Positions 1 to 20,293 of a stretch of DNA of 20,344 bases are shown piece after piece. The DNA comes from JBHIER01 sp046760705 [NCBI: bacterium] (lineage in GTDB: Bacteria; JBHIER01; G020348925), in NCBI GenBank assembly GCA_046760705.1, contig JBHIER010000007.1, positions 1-20,344 on the forward strand, given 5' to 3'. The position numbers were made by a program, and so were the translations under genes. Numbering within the stretch: the first letter of the stretch is position 1; the number at the start of each line of letters is the position of its first letter. The notes under the pieces are model-generated. The model searched no databases, had not been told where the DNA came from, and saw nothing but the letters and a program-made list of their open reading frames with translations.

Positions 1-1546
1 AATCGCCAAGAATGTATCTCCAGACGATACAGAGGGCATCGCCAGGGGTGATCTGACCGTCACAGTTTATTCCAGCAGTCATCTCTGAGTATTCACATTC
101 GCATTCTGATTGAAAGTGGCCCAGGATGTAACGCCAGAAAGCACACAATGCATCGCCGGGAGTGATCTGGCCATCGCAGTTCACGTCGCCACAAAGCTCG
201 GGTCGGGTAGTATCTTCACTGACAGGGGCAACCGAGACAATGCCCCTTGTGGCCACGAAATGATACATATACAGCGCCCCCCAGCCCACGTACCAGACAT
301 CCTTTCTCCCCTTGATATGGTCTATGTGATTCTGGAGCTTTCCACCATCAGACCAATCCAGACGTACGGGGTGCCCTGCACCGTGATAGATACCACCCTG
401 ATCGTATGCGGTGTCAAAATAGCCATTCAGCTCTTCCTCGCTTTTCAACTCCCAAAGCCCACTAAAATAGGATTCCTCGTACAAAGAATCGGCTGCTACC
501 CAAGACGTCCATGAATATTGATGTTCTGAAGTCGAAAAATCTCTATCAGCTAAAAAGTGGAGATGGCCCAACCTTTTCCTGATCGAATCGGCTGTTTCTC
601 CGTGAGGCTGAATCCATGCCCACAAGTATTCCCGATCCGCTCTCTTCATGAAATCTGGAAGGTCCAGGTTATCTATGATGTCGGCTCTGGCAGAATCGAT
701 TTCCAGATTCAAAATATATCCTTTCTCGTGGGGCATATAATGGTTCGCACTGTGGCACCCAGGTTCCACAAAACCTCGATCAATCACGGCCTGGACACTG
801 TCCCAGGTGGGTTCCATGTTCCCCTCGTCGTGGAAGCCCCGGGTGATTATCCCTGGTGTCCACCACAGCTTAGCATCTTTGAGCGCGGCGGCCGCTGCCA
901 AGAAAGAGCCCTCATCGGCCTGAGTTCTGCCCCAGTCGTCCAGAGTGATCGTTACCACCGCCTTTCGGCCGTCATAATATTCGGGGATCTCAATGAAACT
1001 CATGCTTACGGGATCGTCGGCTCCGTCTGCGAGCCTCACGTATGTGGTGTCGCTCCCACTACTGAAAGCAACACTTATGTAGACATTACTGTTGGCTGTG
1101 TCAAACCGCGCCGCTTCAATCCCGTTGAAAAGATCCGAGCTGTTCTTTCTCGCCAACTCATTCCAACAAAACGGAAAAGAATGGCAATACTGAACGGTAA
1201 GATTGCTCGAGCCGGATGGATACGAGAACTTATATGTTATCGGATAACCTAAGCCATAATTAACATGATTTACCGAGTCCACAACTATCCGATAGACGTT
1301 TAACCTCGAACTGTCGGGTTCTCCTGAAGTCTCCGAGCCCAGCGATTCATCGCACGTTGCTTTTATGACCCCGTTCTTGGCATTGATGCCGGACAGGGTG
1401 TGGGGGACTAATACGAACACAATCGTTGCCGCCATCATCATAATCGTCAACAACCTCAAGAACAGTCCCTTCAACTTTTGCTCCGCTCGATCAAGGCTCT
1501 TTGGGAATATCCGGAAAGGGCTCTCCTCCATTCCACAAATCGGCAT
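1..1546 (-). CDS. Secreted NodB-like polysaccharide deacetylase with dockerin-like repeats (partial, C-terminus off left edge)
   Basis: The minus frame stays open from an ATG at 1546 to the window edge, giving 515 visible residues. The N-terminus has a hydrophobic stretch (about residues 28-53) that reads as a signal peptide or anchor. About residues 80-195 look like a beta-rich linker domain. The NodB (polysaccharide deacetylase) signature follows: TITLDDW with the Asp pair at 203-204, the metal motif HSANH at 265-269, WIQPHG at 311-316 and a late His in YHGAGHP (388-392). This family removes acyl groups from extracellular glycans. The C-terminus carries two copies of the calcium loop NCDGQITPGDALC, 38 residues apart, as in dockerin type I repeats. 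The start is uncertain: a TTG at 1474 has GGAG six bases upstream and would give a cleaner signal peptide. The gene begins 48 bases after the upstream repeat protein stops, so cotranscription is likely. The assignment rests on motifs, and the substrate cannot be told. Confidence 0.8.
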   Translation of the reverse strand, partial: MPICGMEESPFRIFPKSLDRAEQKLKGLFLRLLTIMMMAATIVFVLVPHTLSGINAKNGVIKATCDESLGSETSGEPDSSRLNVYRIVVDSVNHVNYGLGYPITYKFSYPSGSSNLTVQYCHSFPFCWNELARKNSSDLFNGIEAARFDTANSNVYISVAFSSGSDTTYVRLADGADDPVSMSFIEIPEYYDGRKAVVTITLDDWGRTQADEGSFLAAAAALKDAKLWWTPGIITRGFHDEGNMEPTWDSVQAVIDRGFVEPGCHSANHYMPHEKGYILNLEIDSARADIIDNLDLPDFMKRADREYLWAWIQPHGETADSIRKRLGHLHFLADRDFSTSEHQYSWTSWVAADSLYEESYFSGLWELKSEEELNGYFDTAYDQGGIYHGAGHPVRLDWSDGGKLQNHIDHIKGRKDVWYVGWGALYMYHFVATRGIVSVAPVSEDTTRPELCGDVNCDGQITPGDALCAFWRYILGHFQSECECEYSEMTAGINCDGQITPGDALCIVWRYILGD

Positions 1547-1593
1547 TGGTGGGCCGATTTTACCTCGTCTTCTCTTCTCAATATTTCTCCCCC

Positions 1594-4239
1594 TCACGGC
1601 CGGAGTACTTTGTTGACAATGGCCGTGACGTCGGCCACCGTTATCTCCCCGCTGCTGTTGCAGTCGGCGCGCCAGAATTCACATCCGTCAGGTTCATCAA
1701 CCCCAATGATGATTCTGACACAGAGAACCACGTCAAGCACATTGATGCGAATGTCATCATTGACATCGCCCTTTAACCCGCACAAATAATCGGAGCTCGT
1801 ATTGAACAGAACTGTCACCGTGTTGCTCTTGGCATTGACCACCGCCAGGTCACCGTCCCCGTCGCCGTCAAAATCCCTCGTCAGCAGGACTGTCGGTTCC
1901 TGACCTACTCCGTAGTCGACCGTTTCCTGAAAAGTTCCGCCTTCAGCGTTCAAAAGGACCGACACATTGCCGCTGTTGGAATTTGTCACCACCAGGTCTC
2001 GATCCCCATCTTCATCCAAGTCTTCGGCCACGGCGCTATATGGCCAGACTCCGACAGGGTAACGGAGCGCATCCCGGAAGGTTCCATCCCCAGCGTTCAA
2101 TAAGACAGCGACGTCGTCACTGAAATAATTGACCACCACTAAATCGCCATCGCTGTCACCGTCCAAGTCTGCGGCCTCGATGAAAGAGGGCTTTTCTCCA
2201 ACAGTGTACAAAACGATATCTTCGAACGCACCATCACCTCCGTTTCTGAGAACAGAAACGCTGCCGCTTCCCCGATTGGAGACGACCGCATCCTGGTCGC
2301 CATCGCCATCCAGATCCTGAACAATGAGAGCGGACGGGACCTCACCTACGCGGTAGTTGATCGCCCCTTGAAACGTACCATCTCCGGTATTCAGAAGAAC
2401 GGAGAGGTCCCCGCTGTTGCTGTTGATTACGATCAGATCGACGGTCTCATTCCCATCCAGATCCACTGCCCTCAGGTGAGTCGGTCCATCTCCGACCGGG
2501 TACTCCGCCGTCTTCTCGAACCGACCTGCTCCGATATTTCGAAGTAGAGCGACGCTGTTCCCACTTCTATTGGACACCGCAAGATCCCTACCCCCATCCC
2601 CGTCAAAATCTTCAGCAACCACTGAGTGCAGCTCGCCACCGATCGCGTAGTTGTGCGTCTCCTGGAACGTTCCATCCCCATTGCCCACAAGGACGGAGAG
2701 GTTACTACTCCCTCGATTGGCCGTCACAATGTCCAATGCCTCGTCGCCATTGAGGTCCACGCCGATGAGGGAATGAGCATCGACTCCAACATCGTAGTCC
2801 CTTTTTCCCTCAAAGCGACCATTCCCGGTGTTCAACAGCACAGACAGATCGCTGCTCCCCCCATTGGCTATTGCCAGATCGTACGATCCATCGCTGTCGA
2901 AATCTTCGGAAAGAAAGGCTCCTGGGTCTTCCCCGACTGCGTAACCAAGACGAGACTGAAAGCTCCCCTCACCATCGTTTGTGAGTACGGAGAGGCTGTT
3001 GCCACCCTCGTTTGTCACGGCTACATCAGGACTACCGTCGCCGTTGAAATCCCCGCTCACTAAGAAGAGGGGCCAGACTCCAACTGTATAGTGTATAGGC
3101 GTTTCAAAGCCCCCGTTGCCGTCATTCTTCACCACAGATATTTCATTGCTCACTCGATTCGTTACAATGATATCGAAATGTCCATTGTTATCGATGTCTG
3201 GGATGAGAAGGAAATAAGGCCGATTGCCGACATCAATATTGTGCGCCTGTTGAAAGGTACCATCTCCTCTATTCATGAAGATTGAAACATTGTCACTGTT
3301 CAAATTCGTCACCGCCACATCGGGATACCCGTCTCCATTGAAATCTTCCGAAGCAATGAAGAACGGCTCTAAACCGGCGTCATAATTGACCGGCTGTCCA
3401 AACGTGCCGTCCCCGGCGTTTAGAAGCAATGAGACGTTGTCGCCCTCTCCATTGGTCACGGCAAAATCTGGGTATCCATCACCATCAAAATCGGCGGAGG
3501 CGACAAAATAGGGCTCCTTCGCCACGGGATAATTTGCCGCTGCTTCAAACGTCCCGTCGCCTCTGTTTATGAGAACAGAGACGTTGTTCGATCCACGATT
3601 TGGAGTGACAATATCGCAAGCTCCATCATTGTCCAAGTCATCGGTGGTGAGAGAATACGGTCTGCTCCCAACAGGATAGTTTTCTGCCTGCCCAAATGTC
3701 CCGTCCCCTCGATTCATCAGTACGGAGACGGTGCCGCCCTCCCAGTTGTTCACGGCCAGATCAGGATAACCATTGCCGTTTAAATCCACAATCGCTATAA
3801 AACGAGGATCTGTCCCCACGTTGTAATCGGTTGCCTCATTGAAGGTGCCGTTCCCTCTGTTCAGCAAGACTGAAACCGTCTTACCCCCTGAATTGGTGAC
3901 GGCAAGATCTGAAAATCCGTCTCCGCTCAAATCCTGCACCGCGATAAAATATGGTCGAGGGCCGACACTATAATACACAGCCGGTTGAAAAGTACCGTCC
4001 ATATCATTTCGCAACACAGAGACTGTTTGACTCGACTTATTGACAATTGCCAAGTCCGAGCAGCCGTCCCTATTAAAATCCTCGGCCACACAGAACAATG
4101 GGCTCCCCCCCACATCGTAATCGATTCGAGTGCAGCAAAAGAGGCGCTCAAAGCCTCGCCCGGGTGAAGCGACCATCCATAGGCCAAATGCCAGACCGGC
4201 TATCATTCTGAACACCTTGCCAGGGGTTTGTTTGCTCAT
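1594..4239 (-). CDS. Secreted FG-GAP/VCBS repeat protein with C-terminal dockerin-like domain
   Basis: This 881-aa protein has a signal peptide (KVFRMIAGLAFGLWMVASPG), then sixteen tandem 49-residue repeats of FG-GAP/VCBS type, then a 65-residue C-terminal domain. Each repeat has the pattern YxVGxxPxxxxxxDxDGDGxxDLxVxN...VSVLxNxGDGTF. It contains a DxDxDGxxD calcium loop, as in integrin-like beta-propeller blades. The C-terminal domain has two calcium loops (GDVNDDIRINVLD and ADCNSSGEITVAD) and resembles a dockerin. I chose the ATG at 4239 rather than the one at 4257 because GGAGG lies eight bases before it and a candidate promoter ends just upstream. The protein is probably exported and binds calcium, glycan or other proteins; no catalytic residues are visible. 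It sits between the mannosidase and the NodB-like deacetylase on the same strand. Confidence 0.85.
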   Translation of the reverse strand: MSKQTPGKVFRMIAGLAFGLWMVASPGRGFERLFCCTRIDYDVGGSPLFCVAEDFNRDGCSDLAIVNKSSQTVSVLRNDMDGTFQPAVYYSVGPRPYFIAVQDLSGDGFSDLAVTNSGGKTVSVLLNRGNGTFNEATDYNVGTDPRFIAIVDLNGNGYPDLAVNNWEGGTVSVLMNRGDGTFGQAENYPVGSRPYSLTTDDLDNDGACDIVTPNRGSNNVSVLINRGDGTFEAAANYPVAKEPYFVASADFDGDGYPDFAVTNGEGDNVSLLLNAGDGTFGQPVNYDAGLEPFFIASEDFNGDGYPDVAVTNLNSDNVSIFMNRGDGTFQQAHNIDVGNRPYFLLIPDIDNNGHFDIIVTNRVSNEISVVKNDGNGGFETPIHYTVGVWPLFLVSGDFNGDGSPDVAVTNEGGNSLSVLTNDGEGSFQSRLGYAVGEDPGAFLSEDFDSDGSYDLAIANGGSSDLSVLLNTGNGRFEGKRDYDVGVDAHSLIGVDLNGDEALDIVTANRGSSNLSVLVGNGDGTFQETHNYAIGGELHSVVAEDFDGDGGRDLAVSNRSGNSVALLRNIGAGRFEKTAEYPVGDGPTHLRAVDLDGNETVDLIVINSNSGDLSVLLNTGDGTFQGAINYRVGEVPSALIVQDLDGDGDQDAVVSNRGSGSVSVLRNGGDGAFEDIVLYTVGEKPSFIEAADLDGDSDGDLVVVNYFSDDVAVLLNAGDGTFRDALRYPVGVWPYSAVAEDLDEDGDRDLVVTNSNSGNVSVLLNAEGGTFQETVDYGVGQEPTVLLTRDFDGDGDGDLAVVNAKSNTVTVLFNTSSDYLCGLKGDVNDDIRINVLDVVLCVRIIIGVDEPDGCEFWRADCNSSGEITVADVTAIVNKVLRP
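1792..4125 (-). repeat. Sixteen tandem 147-bp (49-aa) coding repeats, the last slightly short
   Basis: Aligning the translated repeats by the VG..P and NxGDGTF anchors gives fifteen units of exactly 49 residues and a sixteenth of 43, with no insertions or deletions. The units have diverged in sequence but hold their length, which fits successive duplication of a propeller blade. Sixteen blades could form two propellers of seven or eight blades each (inference). Confidence 0.85.
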
Positions 4240-4265
4240 TCCGTCGACCTCCCTCATTGTGACCT

Positions 4266-4394: not shown

Positions 4395-7300
4395 TTAGAA
4401 CTCAACCGTAATCGTTTTTATTTCATAAGGATTCGTCGGGAGATAGACTGTGTTGCCTCTGGTCTCAAGTTTGGCCTGAACGTTCTCCAAAAGATCCGCT
4501 TCGAAGGCACTTCTAAACCCCATCGAAAGGTCTATCTCAGCTCGGGTCTTCTCTCCAAAGAGCTCATAGAACCTGAGGACCAGATCCTCCCGGGCCTCGG
4601 CCTTTTTGACGACTGAGAGGACAACACCTTCAGGACGGATCGTGGCGAAGGAGCCTTTTGAGGGTAGATCGCCCCTGTGGGGAGATTCTAACACCGCAAT
4701 GAGGGGATAGTTCAACTCGTAACCGCGCCGATGTGTCAGGGCCTGTCGCCAGTTCCCTGAGTGAGGATAGAGGGAGTATGTAAAGGTGTGGTGCCCCATG
4801 TCGGCATTTGGATCGGGCCACTTGGGGGAACGGAATAGCGTAATACGCATGAGATTGCCTTTCACATCGTGCCCGTATTTGCAGTCGTTGAGCAGGCTCA
4901 CTCCGTAAGTGCTATCTGAAAGATCGATCCACTTGTGGGCCGAGACCTCAAACTTGGCGCTGTCCTGAGGGGTTACAGGCACGGATCGTCTGACAATTGT
5001 CCCGTAGGGAATTTCGTAGGTGGCAACATCGCTCTTTACGTTAATGGGGAAAGCAACCTTCAGCAAGATATGATCCTCGTGCCATTCAACCTCATTGAAG
5101 ACCTCGATCCGCGGAAGACCATCATAAAGGAGAACGTCCTGGACGAAGCGCGAATTTCCGAAGGTGCGGGTCACCCTCAGTCTGGCTCTGACCGGGCCCC
5201 TTTCAACAATCTCAATACTCTCAACTTGTTCAATATCCCAGATTTTGCCTGTATATCCAATGTTCCATGCATCCCATGCCTGCGGCAAATCCTCAAAGGC
5301 TTGAAGCACGTTACCCTCCCGGCCAGGTTCCAGGACCTCCCGGATGTGCCGCTTATCAAAAAGCCTGCTCCAGTTACCTGTTTTCGGATTGATCTCGATT
5401 CTGTAAAATTGGGTTTCGAGGAAGTGACGCCCAGTGCGAAGTTGTGATTTCTCCTTAGGTTCATCTTCCGATTTCAACCAGAAGGTCTTGTACCCGATCG
5501 AAGGGATGTCCTCGGCCACAAAGATGAGTGTGTCTTCATACACCTGTGATGGTATCCGGTGACCGTTGCGGTCAAAAACGGAAATGTGTCCCCTCAACTC
5601 CTCGGGGAGCCCAACTTCAACAGCGTCGTCCCTCAACCAAGAGAGGGGGTTGAAGACGACAACCGGTGTGCCTTCTCCCTCAGTTTCGATTCTCCCACAT
5701 ATCTCCCTGAGCGAACGGTTGAGCACCCCCTCCACGGACTCTTCAATCAGATCGTAGTCCCTGTTGGCATCGACGTACACTTCGGAGATGCTGGAGCCGG
5801 GAAGGATGTCGTGAAATTGGTTAAAGAGCGCCCTCTTCCAGGCATCTTCGAGTTTCTGACTGGGATACTCTAATTGAGAGAAGAAGGCGAACTTTTCGGC
5901 CGTCTCCAGAAGGGCCTCGCATCGTCGGTTCCGTTTCTTGATCCGGGCCTGGGTGGTGTAGCAGCCTCGGTGGTACTCTAAATAAAGCTCGTCGTTGCAC
6001 ACCGGGAGGGCAGGGCCATCTTCCTCCACTCTCTTCATAAAGTTCAAAGGGGTGTCGTGGATGACCGTGGGAAATGTATCTATCTCCCATAGCTGGGCAA
6101 CTCGCTCGATCATCTCCTCCGACGGCCCTCCACCGTGATCACCCTCACCGTACAAAACAAGTTGATCCTTCAACCCGGTGCGTTCCTCGTAATCAACAAA
6201 GTGGGAGGCCAACCTCTCAGGTCTGAGATCGTGAACGTACGTATACGGAAAGTAGGAGAAGAGCTGACTACCATCAGGGCTCTGCCAGTAGAACACTTTG
6301 TACGGAAACTCGTTCGTGTCATTCCACGTCAGCTTCTGGGTGATGAAGTACCTGAACCCGGACTTCCGATAGATCTGGGGGAGCGTCCAGGCAAAGCCGA
6401 AGGAGTCCGGAATCCAGGCGATTTTCACATCGATACCGAACTTCTCCTGGAAATACCGTTTCCCGTACAGAATCTGGCGGACCTGGGACTCCCCACTGGG
6501 AAGGTTGTTGTCGGGCTCCACCCACGTCCCGCCGACAATGAGCCATCGCCCATCTTCAACCCTTCTTCGTATCTCCTCGAATAGCTCGGGGTAGTTCTCT
6601 TCCATCCAGACGTAGGCTTGGGCCTGACTCTGAGCATAAACGAAGTCAGGATACTCTTCTATATGCTGAAGGGCCCGCGCAAACGTAGTGCTGCAGACCT
6701 CCACTGTCTCCGACCAGGGCCACAGCCAGGCCATGTCGATATGGGCGTTGCCCACCACATGAAGTGTGTTGGCCTTTATCTCCGGGGAGGTGGACAAGAT
6801 GTACCTGTTCTCTTCTTCAAGCAGTCGGTAAAACTCAGATTTATCGAGCTCGAGAGCCGTTACGAGCAGCTCTGACTTTGCCTCATCCCCCAGTTGAATG
6901 GCGTCTCTGGTAAAAACCGCCGCCCATTTTGCATTGGTGGTCAGTTTGTTGAAATCATCGCTAACCGGCACCAGTTTTGGATCAAGACAGAGGGGAGCCT
7001 GAAAATCCCTCACTTCCACAACGACGGTGAAAGTTTCTCCAAATTGGGCAGAGCTCGTGACCGACACTCTCTCTTCGGAGATAGGTTCTTCAATGCCGTT
7101 GATGAAAGTCCTCTTCGTTCCAAGCAAGTCTCCCAGCTCCAGAGCTAACGGATAGGTTGAGAGTTCCGGGGGCACGCCAATGGTTACACCGAAAGCCACT
7201 GCTCTATGAGTCGTATCAATTTCGGCTCCCTCGGTGTAGACTGCCCAATCTGACGAACGCAGGTCAACCCGCTCGATCGCTCCAATTATACCCCGTTTAT

Positions 7301-8282
7301 ATTGCCACCCTTCAACATCGACGCCCGCAAAGAGCAGGCTCAGGATATCCAGAGGTACGAGTTCAACGGCGAGTCCGTTTCTCTCACCATCCCATTCGAT
7401 CTCGATTTCGAGTTTAGATGTACTCTGCGCCAATTGAGAGATTTCAGTCGCCGTGAAATTGAACCGGAGGGTCTCCTCAGGATAGGACCTCATCTCAAGC
7501 TGGCGGGGGGCAACCCGTGGCTCGTCGGGCCTTTCTTGGACGTGAAGGATAGCCCTTTTCGGACACAGAGTGCCCAGGTTTCCAACCGTGACGTCCAAAG
7601 CAAGCCGGAGGTTTTCCTCCTTCAAGGTGAACTCGGAGAAGGAGGCCTCCTTCACCCGAAGCCAGGGGCTGACGCGGACCGTCTCAAAGGGGCCTTCACC
7701 CACCGGGTTGCCGGCTTGAAATTGGATATGAGGGAGCGGTCCCCCTTGCTCGTCGACCAAGCGCACCGACAGAGCGAAGTCTCCCACACCATTGGCCACC
7801 TTGGCCAGTATGCGGTTCCAGCCGGCGCCCATTCGGACCAAGACCGTATCCTGATCGGGCCGCCACCCCCGGGCCACCTCGCGGGAGTGAACTTCGATGC
7901 CATTCACGTAGATCTTGACCGCATCGTCGCTGCCGACAAGAAGGAGCGCGTTTCGTTCTATCGGGCTCTTTAAAAAAGTGTGGGCGTAACAGACGGTATT
8001 TTCTGTATTGCCGAAATCGCCGGAAGCAACAAAGTCCAGCTTGCCCTTGCGGTCAACGTGCATCCTCTTCCACCTTCTGCCAGCCGTGACCGCACCGTCG
8101 TATGGAACAACCTCCTGTTCTCTTCCGAGAAAATCGACGGCCAGACGCTCCTTCCCTTCCTGGTAAGAAAAAACTCCCAGAACCAGCCACTCTTCAACGA
8201 ACCCTTCTTCTCCAAAAACCGGTACTCCTGCTCCCAGGAGAAAGGGAAGAATAAACGCCAAAAAAATAAACCGTCGTCTCAC
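4395..8282 (-). CDS. Secreted glycoside hydrolase family 38 alpha-mannosidase, very large
   Basis: This 1295-aa protein begins with a GTG that has AGGAGG eight bases upstream, followed by a clear signal peptide (RRRFIFLAFILPFLLGAGV). Residues about 90-180 look like a beta-sandwich accessory domain (VKIYVNGIEVHS...GWNRILAKV). A further 300 or so residues have no motif I can name. The GH38 catalytic region starts near 507: HVVGNAHIDMAWLWPW gives zinc ligands His514 and Asp516. WIPDSFGF gives Asp626 as nucleophile and zinc ligand, and NQFHDILPGSS gives His824. GEGDHGGGP (712-720) is also typical. The family hydrolyses alpha-mannosidic bonds with retention; here it should act outside the cytoplasm on mannose-containing glycans. 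The all-beta C-terminal GH38 domains follow to the end. Many bacterial GH38 enzymes are 800-1050 aa and cytoplasmic, so the export signal and roughly 500-aa N-terminal extension are notable. Exact linkage specificity is unknown. Confidence 0.93.
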   Translation of the reverse strand: MRRRFIFLAFILPFLLGAGVPVFGEEGFVEEWLVLGVFSYQEGKERLAVDFLGREQEVVPYDGAVTAGRRWKRMHVDRKGKLDFVASGDFGNTENTVCYAHTFLKSPIERNALLLVGSDDAVKIYVNGIEVHSREVARGWRPDQDTVLVRMGAGWNRILAKVANGVGDFALSVRLVDEQGGPLPHIQFQAGNPVGEGPFETVRVSPWLRVKEASFSEFTLKEENLRLALDVTVGNLGTLCPKRAILHVQERPDEPRVAPRQLEMRSYPEETLRFNFTATEISQLAQSTSKLEIEIEWDGERNGLAVELVPLDILSLLFAGVDVEGWQYKRGIIGAIERVDLRSSDWAVYTEGAEIDTTHRAVAFGVTIGVPPELSTYPLALELGDLLGTKRTFINGIEEPISEERVSVTSSAQFGETFTVVVEVRDFQAPLCLDPKLVPVSDDFNKLTTNAKWAAVFTRDAIQLGDEAKSELLVTALELDKSEFYRLLEEENRYILSTSPEIKANTLHVVGNAHIDMAWLWPWSETVEVCSTTFARALQHIEEYPDFVYAQSQAQAYVWMEENYPELFEEIRRRVEDGRWLIVGGTWVEPDNNLPSGESQVRQILYGKRYFQEKFGIDVKIAWIPDSFGFAWTLPQIYRKSGFRYFITQKLTWNDTNEFPYKVFYWQSPDGSQLFSYFPYTYVHDLRPERLASHFVDYEERTGLKDQLVLYGEGDHGGGPSEEMIERVAQLWEIDTFPTVIHDTPLNFMKRVEEDGPALPVCNDELYLEYHRGCYTTQARIKKRNRRCEALLETAEKFAFFSQLEYPSQKLEDAWKRALFNQFHDILPGSSISEVYVDANRDYDLIEESVEGVLNRSLREICGRIETEGEGTPVVVFNPLSWLRDDAVEVGLPEELRGHISVFDRNGHRIPSQVYEDTLIFVAEDIPSIGYKTFWLKSEDEPKEKSQLRTGRHFLETQFYRIEINPKTGNWSRLFDKRHIREVLEPGREGNVLQAFEDLPQAWDAWNIGYTGKIWDIEQVESIEIVERGPVRARLRVTRTFGNSRFVQDVLLYDGLPRIEVFNEVEWHEDHILLKVAFPINVKSDVATYEIPYGTIVRRSVPVTPQDSAKFEVSAHKWIDLSDSTYGVSLLNDCKYGHDVKGNLMRITLFRSPKWPDPNADMGHHTFTYSLYPHSGNWRQALTHRRGYELNYPLIAVLESPHRGDLPSKGSFATIRPEGVVLSVVKKAEAREDLVLRFYELFGEKTRAEIDLSMGFRSAFEADLLENVQAKLETRGNTVYLPTNPYEIKTITVEF

Positions 8283-12377: not shown

Positions 12378-12605
12378 ATGAAGATAAAACCAAAAAGATA
12401 TATTGTCTGGTCTACTGATAAAGAGATCGATTTAAGCGACCCCTGGCAGAGGAAGTGGTATATTGGTGAGGTGTTATCTAATGGGAGAGCAGAGGATATT
12501 GCTGAGCTCGACTGGGAAGAAGTGAGAAGACTCCTTCCTGAACTTAATTTACCCAAAAGGGTCAGAAATCTGTGGGAGGATTATTTTGAGTATTCTAAAA
12601 GGTAA
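12378..12605 (+). CDS. Small protein paired with AbiEii-type nucleotidyltransferase, putative antitoxin
   Basis: This 75-aa protein has AGGAGG before its ATG. Its recognisable core is DPWQRKWYIGEVLSNGRAED followed by LDWEEVRRLLPELNLPKRVRNLWEDYF. Small proteins with this pattern (about 70-100 aa, helix-rich) often precede AbiEii nucleotidyltransferase genes; I infer the role of cognate partner or antitoxin from that arrangement. Its last 20 bases overlap the start of the AbiEii gene, so the two are probably translationally coupled. It has no DNA-binding motif I can point to, so control of the operon by this protein is not evident. Confidence 0.75.
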   Translation: MKIKPKRYIVWSTDKEIDLSDPWQRKWYIGEVLSNGRAEDIAELDWEEVRRLLPELNLPKRVRNLWEDYFEYSKR

Positions 12606-13284
12606 AGGGGTTCTCTTATCCATTCAGAGAAATCTATTGGTTGAGTTGGGGAAGATTAATGAGACATCTTTCTTTTGTTTGACTGGAGGTACCGCCCTTT
12701 CTGAATTCTACTTAGCACACCGTCGCTCTTATGACTTAGACCTCTTTACATCTGAATTGGAGCTAATTCTTCCCTTTACAAAGGCTTTGGAAGAAAAGCT
12801 TTTTGAAGAACAATACACTTTTAAGACCACCCGTAGATTTGAGTCCTTTGTAGAGTATGAAGTTGAGAAAAAAGGTGAAAGTACAATACTTCATTTTGCC
12901 TACGACTCTCCATTTAGGCTTGAAGAGCCACAACCTTCAGAGTATGGGATAAAGGTAAATGACTACCGGGATCTTGTGGCGGACAAACTTCTCACATTTT
13001 TCGGACGATGGAAACATCGGGACGCGGTGGACCTCTTTTTCATTTTGAAAAACGAACCTTTTAAGGATCTTATCAGAATGGCCAAGCATAAAGATCCTGG
13101 CTTCGATCTTTACTGGTTCAGTGTAGCTCTCAAGGAGGTTGACCAGTTTCCAGACGAGATCAGCCAGTGGCCCGTAGATATGCTGGTTGAACTGAATGTT
13201 AAGCAGCTAAAAGATAAATTTAGAAATCTTTCCCGAGGAGTTATGAATAAGATTGGGATGGGTAGAAGTGAAGATGAGATCTAA
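12586..13284 (+). CDS. AbiEii/AbiGii-type nucleotidyltransferase toxin-like protein
   Basis: This 232-aa protein carries the AbiEii nucleotidyltransferase signature LTGGTALSEFYLAHRRSYDLDLFT, with Gly34-Gly35 and the metal-binding Asp50 and Asp52. The second signature DLVADKLLTFFGRWKHRDAVDL lies near 129-150. In type IV toxin-antitoxin systems related proteins transfer nucleotides to tRNA or other targets and cause growth arrest or abortive infection. The start is TTG, with GGAGG six bases upstream inside the preceding gene. The AT-rich composition contrasts with the flanking GC-rich genes, which suggests acquisition by transfer. The 3' end overlaps the start of the next gene by 11 bases. Whether it acts as a toxin here is inferred from the family. 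Confidence 0.85.
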   Translation: MSILKGKGVLLSIQRNLLVELGKINETSFFCLTGGTALSEFYLAHRRSYDLDLFTSELELILPFTKALEEKLFEEQYTFKTTRRFESFVEYEVEKKGESTILHFAYDSPFRLEEPQPSEYGIKVNDYRDLVADKLLTFFGRWKHRDAVDLFFILKNEPFKDLIRMAKHKDPGFDLYWFSVALKEVDQFPDEISQWPVDMLVELNVKQLKDKFRNLSRGVMNKIGMGRSEDEI

Positions 13285-16249: not shown

Positions 16250-17098
16250 ATGAGGAGGCTATACACAAGACGACTCAGACCCGCTCTTCTCAGTGTGATC
16301 TTCCTTGCAATGGGCGGACTGAGCTGTCAAAAGCCGCAGGTGGCTGAAAAGAGGGAGCTGCTCTCCCTTCGTTTAGAGCACAAGCCGGTGCACGAGCACA
16401 TCGGTCCGGGAGGGCAGCAGATCCGGGCAAAGATCATCTCTTCCCCCGAATTGGAAGAAGGGGAGGCGAAAATCTTCTATCGGAAGGGGCGGGACGACTT
16501 CATCTCTTTGCCCATGACCTTGACAGGACAAGAGAACGAGTATGTGGCCGTTATCCCCCATCAGCCGAGGGGGACGACAGTGCGGTACTACATCCAAGCG
16601 AGCAGTATCACCGGGACTCAAGTGACCCTGCCGAAAGATGCCCTCGAAACGGGAGAATCGTATGAGCTCACTTTCAAGGGCCGGGCCTCATTGGCCCTAT
16701 TGGGGCTTCACGTTGGGGGCATGATCGGGGGACTGTTGCTGCTTCTGCTGGCGGGATATTGGGCCTCTCTCTTTCTCCGAAAAGGGGAGCGGTTGAACGC
16801 TCTGGCAAAGGCGGCTTTTGGGGGAACGGTCTTCTTCTTTTTGGGAGGGATTCCCTTAGGCATTGCGGTGGAGTACCAGGTCTACGGGACCGTGTGGACG
16901 GGGATCCCCGTGGGGACGGATGTGACCGATTCCAAGACCCTCATCCTGGTCCTCTACTGGATCGGGGTTCTGCTCCTCTTCAAAGGGACCCTCTTCCAAC
17001 GAGGGGAAGGCAAGAACCTTGTCTCCGATAGAACGTTCGCCTGGGCAGTGCTCATCGGGGCCATTTTGACCGTCATCGCCTTTCTCATTCCCCATTAA
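16250..17098 (+). CDS. Membrane protein with periplasmic beta-domain, function unknown
   Basis: This 282-aa protein has AGGAGG eight bases before its ATG. An N-terminal export signal ends in GGLSCQ with Cys26, a near-lipobox. Residues about 35-145 form a polar, beta-rich region (EAKIFYRKG..., VRYYIQASS...) resembling small Ig-like domains. Four hydrophobic segments follow (about 148-176, 188-207, 230-246, 263-280), with short loops between them. I do not recognise a family and see no catalytic motif. It lies between thiL and the arginine decarboxylase gene, only 35 bases before the latter's putative start, so it may be cotranscribed with the polyamine genes. Confidence 0.75.
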   Translation: MRRLYTRRLRPALLSVIFLAMGGLSCQKPQVAEKRELLSLRLEHKPVHEHIGPGGQQIRAKIISSPELEEGEAKIFYRKGRDDFISLPMTLTGQENEYVAVIPHQPRGTTVRYYIQASSITGTQVTLPKDALETGESYELTFKGRASLALLGLHVGGMIGGLLLLLLAGYWASLFLRKGERLNALAKAAFGGTVFFFLGGIPLGIAVEYQVYGTVWTGIPVGTDVTDSKTLILVLYWIGVLLLFKGTLFQRGEGKNLVSDRTFAWAVLIGAILTVIAFLIPH

Positions 17099-17118: not shown

Positions 17119-17136
17119 AGGAGGTGAACAGCTACG
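17119..17136 (+). promoter_or_regulatory. Strong Shine-Dalgarno followed by a probable ACG start codon
   Basis: AGGAGGTGA at 17119-17127 is a perfect match to the 3' end of 16S rRNA. The in-frame codons after it are TGA (17125), ACA, GCT and ACG (17134). The ACG stands nine bases after AGGAGG, where the ATG of homologues would be. The next conventional in-frame start is GTG at 17167, 33 bases farther on, inside a conserved segment. Confidence 0.5.
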
Positions 17137-17676
17137 GTTCCAGGGAAGATCTTTCTCACCAAGGGGGTGGGAAAGCACAAGGAGAAACTGAGATCCTTCG
17201 AAGCGGCTCTCAGAAAGGCCGGGATCGAGAAGTACAACCTGGTCCGGGTCTCCTCCATTCTTCCCCCTGGATGTCGGATCATCTCCCGGGAGAGGGGCCT
17301 CAGCATGCTAAGGCCGGGCGAGATTGTCCATTGCGTCATCTGCAAGAACAGCACCAACGAACCCAACCGGCTCCTGGTGGCCTCCATCGGAATCGCCGTG
17401 CCCACCGAAGAGCAGCAGTACGGCTATCTGAGTGAACATCATGCCTTCGGGCAGACCGACGATGTGGCCGGGGACTACGCCGAAGATTTGGCGGCCAGTA
17501 TGTTGGCCTCAACCCTGGGCATCGAATTTGATCCGGACCTTGCCTGGGACGAACGGCGGGAGGTGTACCGGATGCACGGTAAGATCGTCAAGACCCGCAA
17601 TATCACCCAGTCGGCTGTGGGGGACAAGAAGGGGCTGTGGACAACCGTCGTTGTGGCGGCTGTCTTCATACCCTGA
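17134..17676 (+). CDS. pdaD: Pyruvoyl-dependent arginine decarboxylase, probable ACG start
   Basis: The enzyme decarboxylates arginine to agmatine, the first step of this polyamine route. It is made as a proenzyme that cleaves itself between two serines, the second becoming the pyruvoyl group. Here that site is VSSILPPG, with Ser40-Ser41 counted from ACG. Other family motifs are [64 protein letters not shown] and [20 protein letters not shown]. Homologues I remember start near [19 protein letters not shown]. The matching segment here is [18 protein letters not shown], directly after ACG at 17134. A GTG at 17167 would give 169 aa and cut this beta-strand off; the ACG start gives 180 aa. It heads a cluster with a deoxyhypusine-synthase-like gene and agmatinase. 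Family assignment is firm, the start less so. Confidence 0.9.
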
Positions 17677-17684
17677 CATTAAAA

Positions 17685-17724
17685 GATGAGAGGGGATGAG
17701 AAGGGATCAGAAGGCATGAGAGGA
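17685..17724 (+). repeat. Four imperfect 10-base tandem repeats, purine-rich
   Basis: GATGAGAGGG, GATGAGAAGG, GATCAGAAGG and CATGAGAGGA follow one another directly, just after the decarboxylase stop and about 60 bases before the next gene. The 10-base phase is close to one helical turn. It could be a binding site or simple slippage. Confidence 0.5.
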
Positions 17725-17784
17725 TGATCTCTGGGCATACTCTCATGTGGCTGACTTCAGTGCTGTTCGCAGACCTCATTTTCT

Positions 17785-18837
17785 ATGGAGGAGATGAAGT
17801 TGAAGGAGGAAGAGAAGGTATTGGACACACCCATCTCGCCCTTCGAAGTGAAATCTGGGCAAACGGTGCGTGAAGTTTTGCGAAGGATGGAGTCGATCTC
17901 TTTTCAGGGCCGAAGCTTAGGCACAGCTTTTAGGGTCTGGCGGGAGATGTTAGCGGACGATGCGACCGTAATAATGGGCCTCTCAGGGGCCATGGTGCCA
18001 GCCGGGATGAGAAGCGTCATCGCATACCTGATAGAGAACCGCTTCATCGATTGCCTGGTCTCAACTGGGGCGAACCTCTTCCACGACTGTCACGAAACAT
18101 TGGGGCGGTTCCATTTCAGAGGAGACCCCCATTTTGACGACATCACTCTCTATCAACGCGGAGTCGACAAAATCTACGACACCTATGCCAGCGAGGAGGA
18201 GTTTAGACGATCGGATAAGTTCGTTGCCGATTTCGCCGGAGGCCTCAACTCCCAGCGGATCTATACGACCAGGGAATTTCTAAAACTTCTGGGAGAATGG
18301 CTTGGAGAAGAAGGCCCTGCCGAGGGAATCCTGACATCGGCAGCCAAAGCAAACGTTCCCGTATACTGTCCGGCCATAGGAGATTCGTCCTTAGGGATTG
18401 CCCTTACGTTGCTCACCTCCAAAATTGGTCGGAGATTCCAGTTTGACGTCATAGGCGACGTGGAAGAACTGACGAACATTGTGGCCAAATCCAAAAAGAC
18501 AGGGGTCATCTATGTCGGGGGTGGGACTCCGAAAAACTTCATACAACAGACCGAGGTGGCGGCCTCGATTCTGGGGCACGACGTGAAGGGTCACCATTAT
18601 GCCATCCAGATCATTGTCGATGCTCCCCACTGGGGAGGGCTTTCAGGGGCCACTTTCGAAGAAGCGCAGTCCTGGGGGAAGATATCCGCCTCTGCAAAGA
18701 AGGTGACCCTTTACTGTGATGCCACCATCGCTCTGCCTCTTCTGGTTACCGCCTTAGCGGAGGAGGCAGGAGAGATACGCCGCGGAGTGTCCGTCACTTT
18801 CCGTTTGAACGAAACCCTGGAGATGACCATATCGTGA
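17785..18837 (+). CDS. Deoxyhypusine synthase-like protein, probable homospermidine-forming enzyme
   Basis: This 350-aa protein is homologous to deoxyhypusine synthase, an NAD-dependent enzyme that transfers an aminobutyl group from spermidine. The catalytic lysine region is intact: LSGATFEEAQSWGKIS with Lys299, aligned with the active-site lysine of the eukaryotic enzyme in SWGKI. Other marks are GLSGAMVPAGMR, LVSTGANLFHD, YVGGGTPKNF and DATIALPLL. Bacteria generally lack the eIF5A target, and bacterial homologues are linked to homospermidine synthesis from putrescine (established in some lineages). Location between arginine decarboxylase and agmatinase supports a polyamine role. The start is uncertain among ATG 17785, ATG 17794 and TTG 17800; GGAGG at 17788-17792 is best spaced for the TTG. 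The stop overlaps the next gene by four bases (GTGA). Confidence 0.88.
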   Translation: MEEMKLKEEEKVLDTPISPFEVKSGQTVREVLRRMESISFQGRSLGTAFRVWREMLADDATVIMGLSGAMVPAGMRSVIAYLIENRFIDCLVSTGANLFHDCHETLGRFHFRGDPHFDDITLYQRGVDKIYDTYASEEEFRRSDKFVADFAGGLNSQRIYTTREFLKLLGEWLGEEGPAEGILTSAAKANVPVYCPAIGDSSLGIALTLLTSKIGRRFQFDVIGDVEELTNIVAKSKKTGVIYVGGGTPKNFIQQTEVAASILGHDVKGHHYAIQIIVDAPHWGGLSGATFEEAQSWGKISASAKKVTLYCDATIALPLLVTALAEEAGEIRRGVSVTFRLNETLEMTIS

Positions 18838-19706
18838 CGGAAACCCGGAGAGAGAACTTCCTCGGACTGCCCGGGCGGTTCTCAAAGGAGGCCGACTCGC
18901 GCTTTACTGTTCTGCCCATCCCGTACGAACAGACAACGACCTATGTGAGAGGAACACGGTACGGGCCCCAGGCCATCCTCGAGGCATCGCACCAGGTTGA
19001 ACTCTACGACGAGGAGCTCGATCTGGAGCCATACGAGGTGGGGATTCACACCGCATCGGATCTTGATCTCAGCGCCTCACCGCAGCAGGCCCTGGAAGAG
19101 ATCTATAGGACGGTCTCAGATGTCCTTAAGAGAGGCAAGATCCCCGTGGCTCTGGGGGGGGAACATACCCTGACGATCGGGGTGGTCAGGCCGTTGGCTG
19201 AGGTATACGGTGGCCTCACCGTTCTCCAATTGGACGCTCACGCCGATCTGCGGGATGAATATTTCAACTCGAAGCTGAACCACGCCTGCACTGCCCGGCG
19301 CCTTCTCGAACATGGACCTGTAATTCAGGCAGGAGTTCGAAGCATGAGCAAACCTGAGGCCGACTACGTGAGGGAGCACAACCTCAAGGTGTTCTATACG
19401 CAGCAGGTGAGAGGGAAGGAGGGACGCGAGGAGGTGGTCTCGCGCCTTTCGAACGATGTCTACGTGACCGTTGACTTAGATGTTTTCGACCCGGGGATCA
19501 TGCCTGCCGTGGGCGCGCCCGAACCCGGGGGGCTGGACTGGTACGATGTCCTGGGGTTGATACGGGCTGTCTCCCAGAGGAGCAGAATCGTCGGATTTGA
19601 TGTGGTCGAACTCTGCCCCCAGTCTGGGAACATCGCCCCCAACTTTTTGGCGGCAAAATTGGTCTACAAGGTGATTGGCTATATTGTGGCCTCGGACCAG
19701 ATCTGA
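18834..19706 (+). CDS. speB: Agmatinase (agmatine ureohydrolase)
   Basis: This 290-aa member of the ureohydrolase family hydrolyses agmatine to putrescine and urea. The manganese ligands are all present: GGEHT (His111), DAHADLRDEY (Asp134, His136, Asp138) and VDLDVFDPGIMP (Asp214, Asp216). FDVVELCP follows near 255. The start is GTG at 18834, overlapping the stop of the preceding gene in GTGA, which suggests translational coupling. It uses the product of the arginine decarboxylase two genes upstream and supplies putrescine to the deoxyhypusine-synthase-like enzyme. Agmatinase is preferred over formimidoylglutamase or arginase because of the neighbours and the compact length. Confidence 0.95.
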   Translation: MTETRRENFLGLPGRFSKEADSRFTVLPIPYEQTTTYVRGTRYGPQAILEASHQVELYDEELDLEPYEVGIHTASDLDLSASPQQALEEIYRTVSDVLKRGKIPVALGGEHTLTIGVVRPLAEVYGGLTVLQLDAHADLRDEYFNSKLNHACTARRLLEHGPVIQAGVRSMSKPEADYVREHNLKVFYTQQVRGKEGREEVVSRLSNDVYVTVDLDVFDPGIMPAVGAPEPGGLDWYDVLGLIRAVSQRSRIVGFDVVELCPQSGNIAPNFLAAKLVYKVIGYIVASDQI

Positions 19707-19888: not shown

Positions 19889-20293
19889 TTACATTGAAAG
19901 GCGGGTGTAGAGTTTTTTTAAATCCCCGCTCTCTTTGTGGAGAATCTCATAAAGTTCACTCACATCGACGGTGTTATATTCATGGACTACCCGATTACGA
20001 AATCCGATCATCTCAATATACCCTCTGACTTCCTTTTCTGGAATGAGACTCTCGTCTTTCAATATGTCAATGACCTCTGCACTTGTGGTGGGAATCCGAA
20101 GGCCGAGACTTGAAATGATATACCTTCCGATGTCCAACAGGGCTTCGATGGTGGTCTGGAGTCTGTGTAATACGGAAGCAACCCTCTCGAAATGGGATAA
20201 CAGCTCGTCAAGACTGTACTTTTTTAGCCTCCTCAGTTTTTCAAAATTATCTATGAGGAAATCTATTTTGTGTTGTATGTCACGCTGTTTCAT
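19889..20293 (-). CDS. hepT: HepT-like HEPN ribonuclease toxin (DUF86 type)
   Basis: This 134-aa helical protein ends its core in IGFRNRVVHEYNTVD, which holds the HEPN ribonuclease motif RX4H (Arg99, His104). The following Tyr106 makes the full RX4HXY motif of HepT toxins, whose tyrosine is AMPylated by the MntA antitoxin. The N-terminal helices (KIDFLIDNFEKLRRLKKYS, RVASVLHRLQTTIEALLDIG) match the DUF86 layout. The ATG at 20293 has GGAG eight bases upstream. The partner nucleotidyltransferase gene normally precedes hepT, so it would lie on this strand beyond the right edge. Two frames are open into the edge and I cannot tell which is coding. It converges on speB, with 182 bases between them. 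Confidence 0.85.
   Translation of the reverse strand: MKQRDIQHKIDFLIDNFEKLRRLKKYSLDELLSHFERVASVLHRLQTTIEALLDIGRYIISSLGLRIPTTSAEVIDILKDESLIPEKEVRGYIEMIGFRNRVVHEYNTVDVSELYEILHKESGDLKKLYTRLSM

What the first reader, a model, noticed from the sequence alone, without database searches (positions are those of the whole stretch)
17119..17170. Arginine decarboxylase gene seems to start at ACG behind a perfect Shine-Dalgarno
Seen: AGGAGGTGA, nine bases after AGGAGG an in-frame ACG, then codons for [18 protein letters not shown], the conserved N-terminus of bacterial pyruvoyl arginine decarboxylases. An in-frame TGA sits within the Shine-Dalgarno, and no ATG, GTG or TTG occurs before GTG 17167. Starting at that GTG would lose a conserved strand of the enzyme core. 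Inference: a natural ACG initiation codon, perhaps tuning expression of a polyamine enzyme, or a single T-to-C error in the assembly.
Basis: partly seen in the sequence, partly recalled or inferred. Interest (0 to 1): 0.6.

Follow-up and report, generated by a model that had tools for sequence, protein, structure and literature searches.

The report
Arginine decarboxylase gene starting at ACG
A well-conserved bacterial gene for a polyamine-making enzyme begins, in this sequence, with ACG instead of a normal start codon, right behind an unusually strong ribosome-binding site; it is either a rare natural weak start propped up by strong ribosome binding, or a one-letter error or strain variant that only the reads can settle.

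Summary
In detail: AGGAGGTGA (17119-17127), then in-frame ACG 17134-17136; an in-frame TGA lies inside the Shine-Dalgarno (SD), and the next ordinary start is GTG 17167. The frame encodes a pyruvoyl-dependent arginine decarboxylase (PF01862, 6.5e-62), intact and under purifying selection. ACG sits where the closest, syntenic relative (L001, CP070758.1, 86% identity) has ATG. Of 109 other loci none has ACG in this column, and 108 have ATG, GTG or TTG 0-15 codons upstream of it. GTG 17167 would delete invariant F7, T9, G11 and most of strand 1. So translation very probably starts at 17134. The SD is exceptional: predicted -17.9 kcal/mol against -5.9 in L001; 1 of 220 ORFs of the relative and 0 of 108 homologous loci match it. 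That fits a weak start codon offset by an extended SD. But no reads, window genome or second copy were available, no relative shares ACG, and a T-to-C error or strain variant at 17135 is about as likely.

The parts
17119..17127 (+). Extended Shine-Dalgarno AGGAGGTGA
   Evidence: Read; predicted duplex with an assumed canonical anti-SD -17.9 kcal/mol, 11 pairs
17125..17127 (+). In-frame TGA stop inside the SD, bounds the frame upstream
   Evidence: translation
17134..17136 (+). ACG, the proposed start codon
   Evidence: Same alignment column as ATG of L001; 81 of 109 loci have ATG/GTG/TTG in this very column
17134..17676 (+). Pyruvoyl-dependent arginine decarboxylase gene, 180 codons plus stop
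   Evidence: PF01862 6.5e-62; TIGR00286 125.4 bits, cut-off 106.95; model pLDDT 93.6 matches 1n2m/2qqd
17167..17169 (+). GTG (Val12), first ordinary start codon in frame, rejected as the start
17251..17256 (+). Ser40-Ser41 codons, the presumed self-cleavage site (Ser41 gives the pyruvoyl group)
   Evidence: S40, S41 invariant in 35 sequences; Ser41 aligned with residue 53 of the S53A proenzyme 1n2m (entry title)
16250..17098 (+). Upstream hypothetical protein, ends 35 bases before ACG
   Evidence: syntenic in L001; no Pfam or NCBIfam match at E 0.001
17785..18837 (+). Deoxyhypusine synthase family gene
   Evidence: PF01916 8.3e-96; NF002006 442.6 bits, cut-off 434
18834..19706 (+). Agmatinase gene, overlaps the end of the preceding gene by 4 bases
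   Evidence: TIGR01230 246 bits, cut-off 174.3

Best explanation
The gene is a functional pyruvoyl-dependent arginine decarboxylase whose translation starts at ACG 17134. The 30S subunit is held on the mRNA by an extended SD-anti-SD helix (AGGAGGTGA) that puts ACG in the P site at normal spacing, where initiator fMet-tRNA (anticodon CAU) pairs at positions 1 and 3 and tolerates the middle mismatch, so the protein still starts with (f)Met. The strong SD offsets the weak codon, giving low to moderate synthesis of the first enzyme of an agmatine/putrescine pathway. Shown: the intact conserved frame, the homology-defined start column, the outlying predicted SD, ATG in the relative. Inferred: that ACG is the true base, that it is used, how the tRNA pairs, and that expression is lowered.
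For: Start site: L001, syntenic across thiL-hypothetical-argDC-DHS-agmatinase, has ATG in this column; 108 of 109 loci have a canonical start 0-15 codons upstream of it, 103 of 109 within 0-2. Coding upstream of GTG 17167: residues 2-11 conserved, with synonymous changes against L001; strand 1 = residues 5-15 in the model. Function: dN 0.093, dS 1.34, no gap or stop against L001; frames intact in 5 of 5 correctly framed syntenic gene pairs. Compensation: SD energy -17.9 kcal/mol against -5.9 in L001 and -11.0 for the strongest of 16 other start candidates in the window; as strong in 1 of 220 ORFs or 1 of 201 5'-proximal starts of the relative and 0 of 108 homologous loci. Literature, passages only: genes with GUG/UUG starts more often have a strong SD (PMC5622118); three S. 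aureus AUA/AUU starts are predicted to have extended SDs (PMC13009471); ACG variants still gave working genes in E. coli constructs (PMC10449621; crtZ in the best strain of PMC6925171).
Against: No relative has ACG here (0 of 109), so no conservation supports it. One transition restores ATG, and PMC5622118 reports switches to AUG from GUG (4.0%) and UUG (1.7%) as far commoner than the reverse (passage), so a weak start should be short-lived. In the RFP library of PMC6925171 ACG is in the same 0.1-1.5% group as the stop codon TAA, i.e. perhaps background. PMC5622118 says the SD trend is not universal among phyla, and PMC13009471 saw no strong SD difference between AUG, GUG and UUG; in the relative's genome median SD is no stronger before GTG (-6.1) or TTG (-6.3) than ATG (-7.3). 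The SD and the CG of ACG are paired in the predicted fold, which is no stronger than shuffles (z 0.33). Matches of -17.8 also occur at non-start codons inside ORFs of the relative, and matches to -15.8 inside window ORFs. The anti-SD was assumed: no 16S 3' end was found in G001. The 108 homologous loci span many phyla and archaea, where SD use may differ. The SD drew attention to the site, which is a selection bias.
Confidence: 0.45

Rival explanations
1. The true base at 17135 is T: the gene starts with an ordinary ATG, and C is a consensus error, a chimeric join of strains or a minority strain variant in a (probably metagenome) assembly.
For: The relative has ATG at exactly this column; ATG is the codon in this column in 72 of 109 loci; one transition explains everything; no window genome is held, and no second copy turned up in the collections searched.
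Against: No other sign of poor sequence: five syntenic genes have intact frames, though that tests for indels, not substitutions. The outlying SD is then a coincidence (1 of 220).
Confidence: 0.43
2. C is real but is a recent start-loss mutation; the decarboxylase is made poorly or not at all in this strain and the frame has not had time to decay.
For: ACG initiates weakly in E. coli constructs (PMC6925171, PMC10449621 passages); none of 109 other loci has ACG here.
Against: Frame fully intact with the lowest dN of the five compared genes, and the SD is stronger than in any of 108 homologous loci instead of decaying. A recent mutation would leave the same picture, so this is weak.
Confidence: 0.07
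3. Translation starts at GTG 17167 and makes a protein shorter by 11 residues.
For: It is the first ATG/GTG/TTG in frame, so software limited to these codons would choose it or omit the gene.
Against: It removes invariant F7, T9, G11 and 7 of 11 residues of strand 1, cutting the predicted 40-residue beta chain to 29; its SD match is -6.2 kcal/mol and directly abuts the codon; 108 of 109 other loci have a canonical start before this point.
Confidence: 0.03
4. A one-base indel error between 17124 and 17134 hides a start at GTG 17124.
For: GTG 17124 is one base out of frame.
Against: Its SD match is -5.1 kcal/mol and it overlaps the strong SD; it would leave that SD and its spacing to the conserved start column unexplained.
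Confidence: 0.02

Closest known systems
Extended-SD non-canonical starts of Staphylococcus aureus (infC AUA, cvfC1 AUU, ccpN AUA; PMC13009471, passages seen)
   Same: A codon outside ATG/GTG/TTG behind an unusually long SD that is thought to direct its choice; effect is low, adjustable expression
   Different: Those codons mismatch at position 3, were found by ribosome profiling and two of them are described as conserved; this one mismatches at position 2, is seen once and is unproven. The gene here is a metabolic enzyme
E. coli infC and pcnB AUU starts (recalled; pcnB seen only as a reference title)
   Same: Natural inefficient start codon keeping expression low
   Different: AUU, not ACG; experimentally established (recalled)
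Pyruvoyl-dependent arginine decarboxylase, Methanocaldococcus jannaschii (1mt1, 1n2m, 2qqd)
   Same: Fold, Ser-Ser cleavage site, family profile
   Different: About 20% identity over the structural alignment; start codon of the archaeal gene not examined
Polyamine modulon of E. coli (PMC4405209, passages seen)
   Same: Inefficient UUG or GUG starts whose initiation is raised by polyamines
   Different: The members named in those passages are not polyamine synthesis genes and none is given an ACG start; no polyamine effect was tested here

Membership tests
Pyruvoyl-dependent arginine decarboxylase (PF01862, TIGR00286) | Profile match above curated cut-off | tested here: met
   PF01862 208.6 bits (cut-off 22.7), TIGR00286 125.4 (106.95); NF009064 just below its cut-off, 206.3 against 207
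Pyruvoyl-dependent arginine decarboxylase (PF01862, TIGR00286) | Self-cleaving Ser pair that yields the pyruvoyl group | tested here: met
   S40 and S41 invariant in 35 sequences; Ser41 aligned with residue 53 of 1n2m. Cleavage itself not tested
Pyruvoyl-dependent arginine decarboxylase (PF01862, TIGR00286) | Common fold | tested here: met
   AlphaFold model pLDDT 93.6; Foldseek best hit 1n2m_B E 2.4e-22, TM 0.74 (query) and 0.82 (target)
Pyruvoyl-dependent arginine decarboxylase (PF01862, TIGR00286) | Arginine decarboxylase activity | not testable with these tools
   Needs an enzyme assay
Non-canonical start codon with extended SD | Codon other than ATG/GTG/TTG at the homology-defined start, with no ordinary start between it and the upstream stop | tested here: met
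   As the sequence stands
Non-canonical start codon with extended SD | SD longer or stronger than the genomic norm at proper spacing | tested here: met
   1 of 220 ORFs of the relative as strong; norm taken from the relative, anti-SD assumed
Non-canonical start codon with extended SD | Conservation of the codon in relatives | tested here: not met
   0 of 109 loci with ACG; nearest relative ATG. No relative closer than 86% protein identity was available
Non-canonical start codon with extended SD | Base confirmed by reads and initiation shown by ribosome profiling or N-terminal peptide | not testable with these tools
   No genome of this window is held; reads and proteome data are not among the tools

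The most novel reading that the evidence does not exclude
A natural bacterial ACG start on a polyamine-synthesis enzyme, held in place by an extended SD and used as a sensor: polyamines promote initiation at inefficient start codons, so output of the arginine decarboxylase responds to the cell's own polyamine level (feed-forward, or a brake if excess polyamine represses).
Probability: 0.07. Interest if true: 0.75.

Novelty: new variant of a known kind. Interest (0 to 1): 0.35.

Why it matters
If the base is real, it is a natural bacterial gene initiated at ACG, a codon that bacterial gene finders normally do not allow (recalled), and a clear case of a strong SD offsetting a start codon with a mismatch in its middle base. 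It would argue for allowing such codons, with an SD condition, in bacterial gene finding. If the base is wrong, it is a reminder that one-letter errors at start codons can truncate or remove good genes from annotation.

Tried and rejected
GTG 17167 as the start: rejected because it removes invariant residues and most of strand 1. GTG 17124 with an indel: weak SD, wrong frame. Pseudogene: no stop or gap, dN/dS about 0.07. Structured leader or riboswitch: no Rfam match at gathering score in the window, fold not stronger than shuffles. Viral-contig copies: 5 stretches matched a pattern, none encodes a relative. Closer relatives through the genome search: class and phylum searches around G001 returned only G001 itself; 'relatives' gave matches in 52 of 145 genomes, G001 among them, the next best at 71% identity. 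16S 3' end of the relative, to read the anti-SD: not found, only a 16S fragment (model positions 54-354) near runs of N. ACG elsewhere in the relative: of 20 ORFs with no canonical start in the first 30 codons, 6 have an in-frame ACG there, the best SD match being -9.4 kcal/mol; not pursued. A published natural bacterial ACG start: I saw none in the listings of searches of one open-access library (judged from titles and opening lines, mostly viral, organellar, eukaryotic or engineered); Hecht et al. 2017 (all 64 codons) is not held there. This is not proof of absence. (a ribosomal protein family in G001) was not used.

Own slips: registers four loci by hand; one search treated minus-strand loci as plus and its homologue counts are replaced; the sixth pair (beta-propeller gene) was mis-framed by me and is not counted; L081 is a second copy of L001 and was dropped, leaving 109; possible overlap between L001-L080 and L082-L110 was not checked. 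The alignment and fold used 35 rows of the 110 available (window plus 109 loci).

Full report
What is there. The sequence reads AGGAGGTGA-ACAGCT-ACG-GTTCCAGGG at 17119-17145. The frame from ACG 17134 runs 180 codons to TGA 17674-17676; an in-frame TGA at 17125-17127 closes the frame upstream, and only ACA and GCT lie between it and ACG. GTG 17167 is the first ordinary start in frame. The product is a pyruvoyl-dependent arginine decarboxylase (PF01862 E 6.5e-62; TIGR00286 above its cut-off), with the Ser40-Ser41 cleavage pair and a confident model (pLDDT 93.6) that matches the M. jannaschii enzyme.

Where translation starts. One scan of GTDB-species contigs kept the best 80 of 388 related stretches. 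The closest, L001 (CP070758.1, titled Gemmatimonadota bacterium bin29), is 86% identical and shares gene order thiL, hypothetical, argDC, DHS, agmatinase. It has ATG exactly where the window has ACG. The one exception, L086, lies in a frame open for 638 codons and has ATG four codons downstream of the column. Of the 28 loci without a start in the column, 24 have one 1-3 codons upstream; in the window the upstream stop rules that out.

Why not GTG 17167. It lies at Val12. F7, T9 and G11 are invariant and P3 nearly so in 35 aligned sequences, and residues 5-15 form the first strand of the model. The codons before GTG show synonymous changes against L001. Its SD match is -6.2 kcal/mol and touches the codon.

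Is the gene alive? Against L001 argDC has dN 0.093 and dS 1.34, no gap and no stop; of the five correctly framed syntenic pairs it has the lowest dN, and none of the five has a broken frame. That speaks against a pseudogene and against indel-rich sequence; it says nothing about single substitutions.

The Shine-Dalgarno. Predicted pairing with a canonical anti-SD is -17.9 kcal/mol over 11 pairs. L001's own argDC start has -5.9; 16 other start candidates in the window, some of them alternatives for one gene, reach at most -11.0. In 400 kb of the relative's genome, 1 of 220 long ORFs (best start in the first 35% of the ORF) or 1 of 201 starts in the first 30 codons is as strong, and the latter is a GTG start. 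Among 108 homologous loci none is (strongest -13.8). Two very strong 5'-proximal SDs in the relative stand before GTG (-18.8) and TTG (-17.7), an anecdote only: medians by start codon show no such trend (ATG -7.3, GTG -6.1, TTG -6.3). Cautions: the anti-SD was assumed; equally strong matches (-17.8) occur at non-start codons inside ORFs of the relative, and to -15.8 in window ORFs; the 108 loci span many phyla including archaea; and the site was probably noticed because of its SD.

Mechanism. In 36 groups of prokaryotes, genes with GUG or UUG starts more often have strong SDs, though not in every phylum (PMC5622118, passages); of 61,358 ancestral AUG starts it reports 2 switches to CUG and 1 to AUU, and the text does not contain ACG. 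In S. aureus, three non-canonical starts (infC AUA, cvfC1 AUU, ccpN AUA) are predicted to have extended SDs, and reporters of three such starts gave about 10% of AUG output in poor medium (PMC13009471, passages; the same paper saw no strong SD difference between AUG, GUG and UUG). In E. coli, ACG is listed in a 0.1-1.5% group in one RFP library, together with the stop codon TAA, so possibly background; yet the best zeaxanthin strain of that paper has ACG as the crtZ start (PMC6925171, passages). An ACG variant of bjaR still worked, at a lower initiation rate than ATG or CTG (PMC10449621, passages). An ACG start with this SD would therefore be weak but may be workable. I give 0.45 to a natural ACG start and 0.43 to a misread or strain-variant ATG; the site of initiation itself I hold at about 0.95.

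Regulation. The gene stands before a deoxyhypusine-synthase-family gene and an agmatinase, so it probably makes agmatine for a polyamine pathway (inferred from families). Polyamines raise initiation at UUG and GUG starts in E. coli (PMC4405209, passages), and excess polyamine is reported to repress modulon proteins (PMC7177335, title and opening of abstract in a listing). A polyamine-responsive ACG start is possible but untested. The predicted fold around the start pairs the SD and part of ACG, but it is no more stable than shuffled sequence (z 0.33), and Rfam finds nothing in the window at gathering scores.

What could not be done. No genome of this window is held, reads are not available, viral contigs gave no relative, and the metagenome collection had a cap of zero. 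The central question, C or T at 17135, is therefore open.

Noticed in passing
window 17134-19706: Cluster pvlArgDC, deoxyhypusine-synthase-family gene, agmatinase, kept in L001. The middle gene scores as deoxyhypusine synthase (NF002006), but bacteria are not known (recalled) to have the IF5A substrate, so it may make a homospermidine-like polyamine instead.
   Followed up: partly
L115:3539 and L115:8319: In the relative's genome two very strong 5'-proximal SDs stand before GTG and TTG starts; medians over 201 starts show no such trend.
   Followed up: partly
L086: An argDC homologue sits in a 638-codon open frame with no start codon within 15 codons upstream of the usual position: fusion, later ATG start or high-GC open frame.
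   Followed up: no
window 1594-4257 (-): Large protein with 15 FG-GAP repeat stretches and a C-terminal type I dockerin domain (25.4 bits, cut-off 22.9); the neighbouring 2-1597 (-) protein has no Pfam match but ends, by eye, in a similar dockerin-like repeat.
   Followed up: no
window 4395-8282 (-): Glycoside hydrolase family 38 (alpha-mannosidase) protein.
   Followed up: no
window 12586-13284 (+) and 19889-20293 (-): AbiEii-like nucleotidyltransferase (PF08843) and HepT-like protein (PF01934), possible toxin-antitoxin parts; partners were not examined.
   Followed up: no
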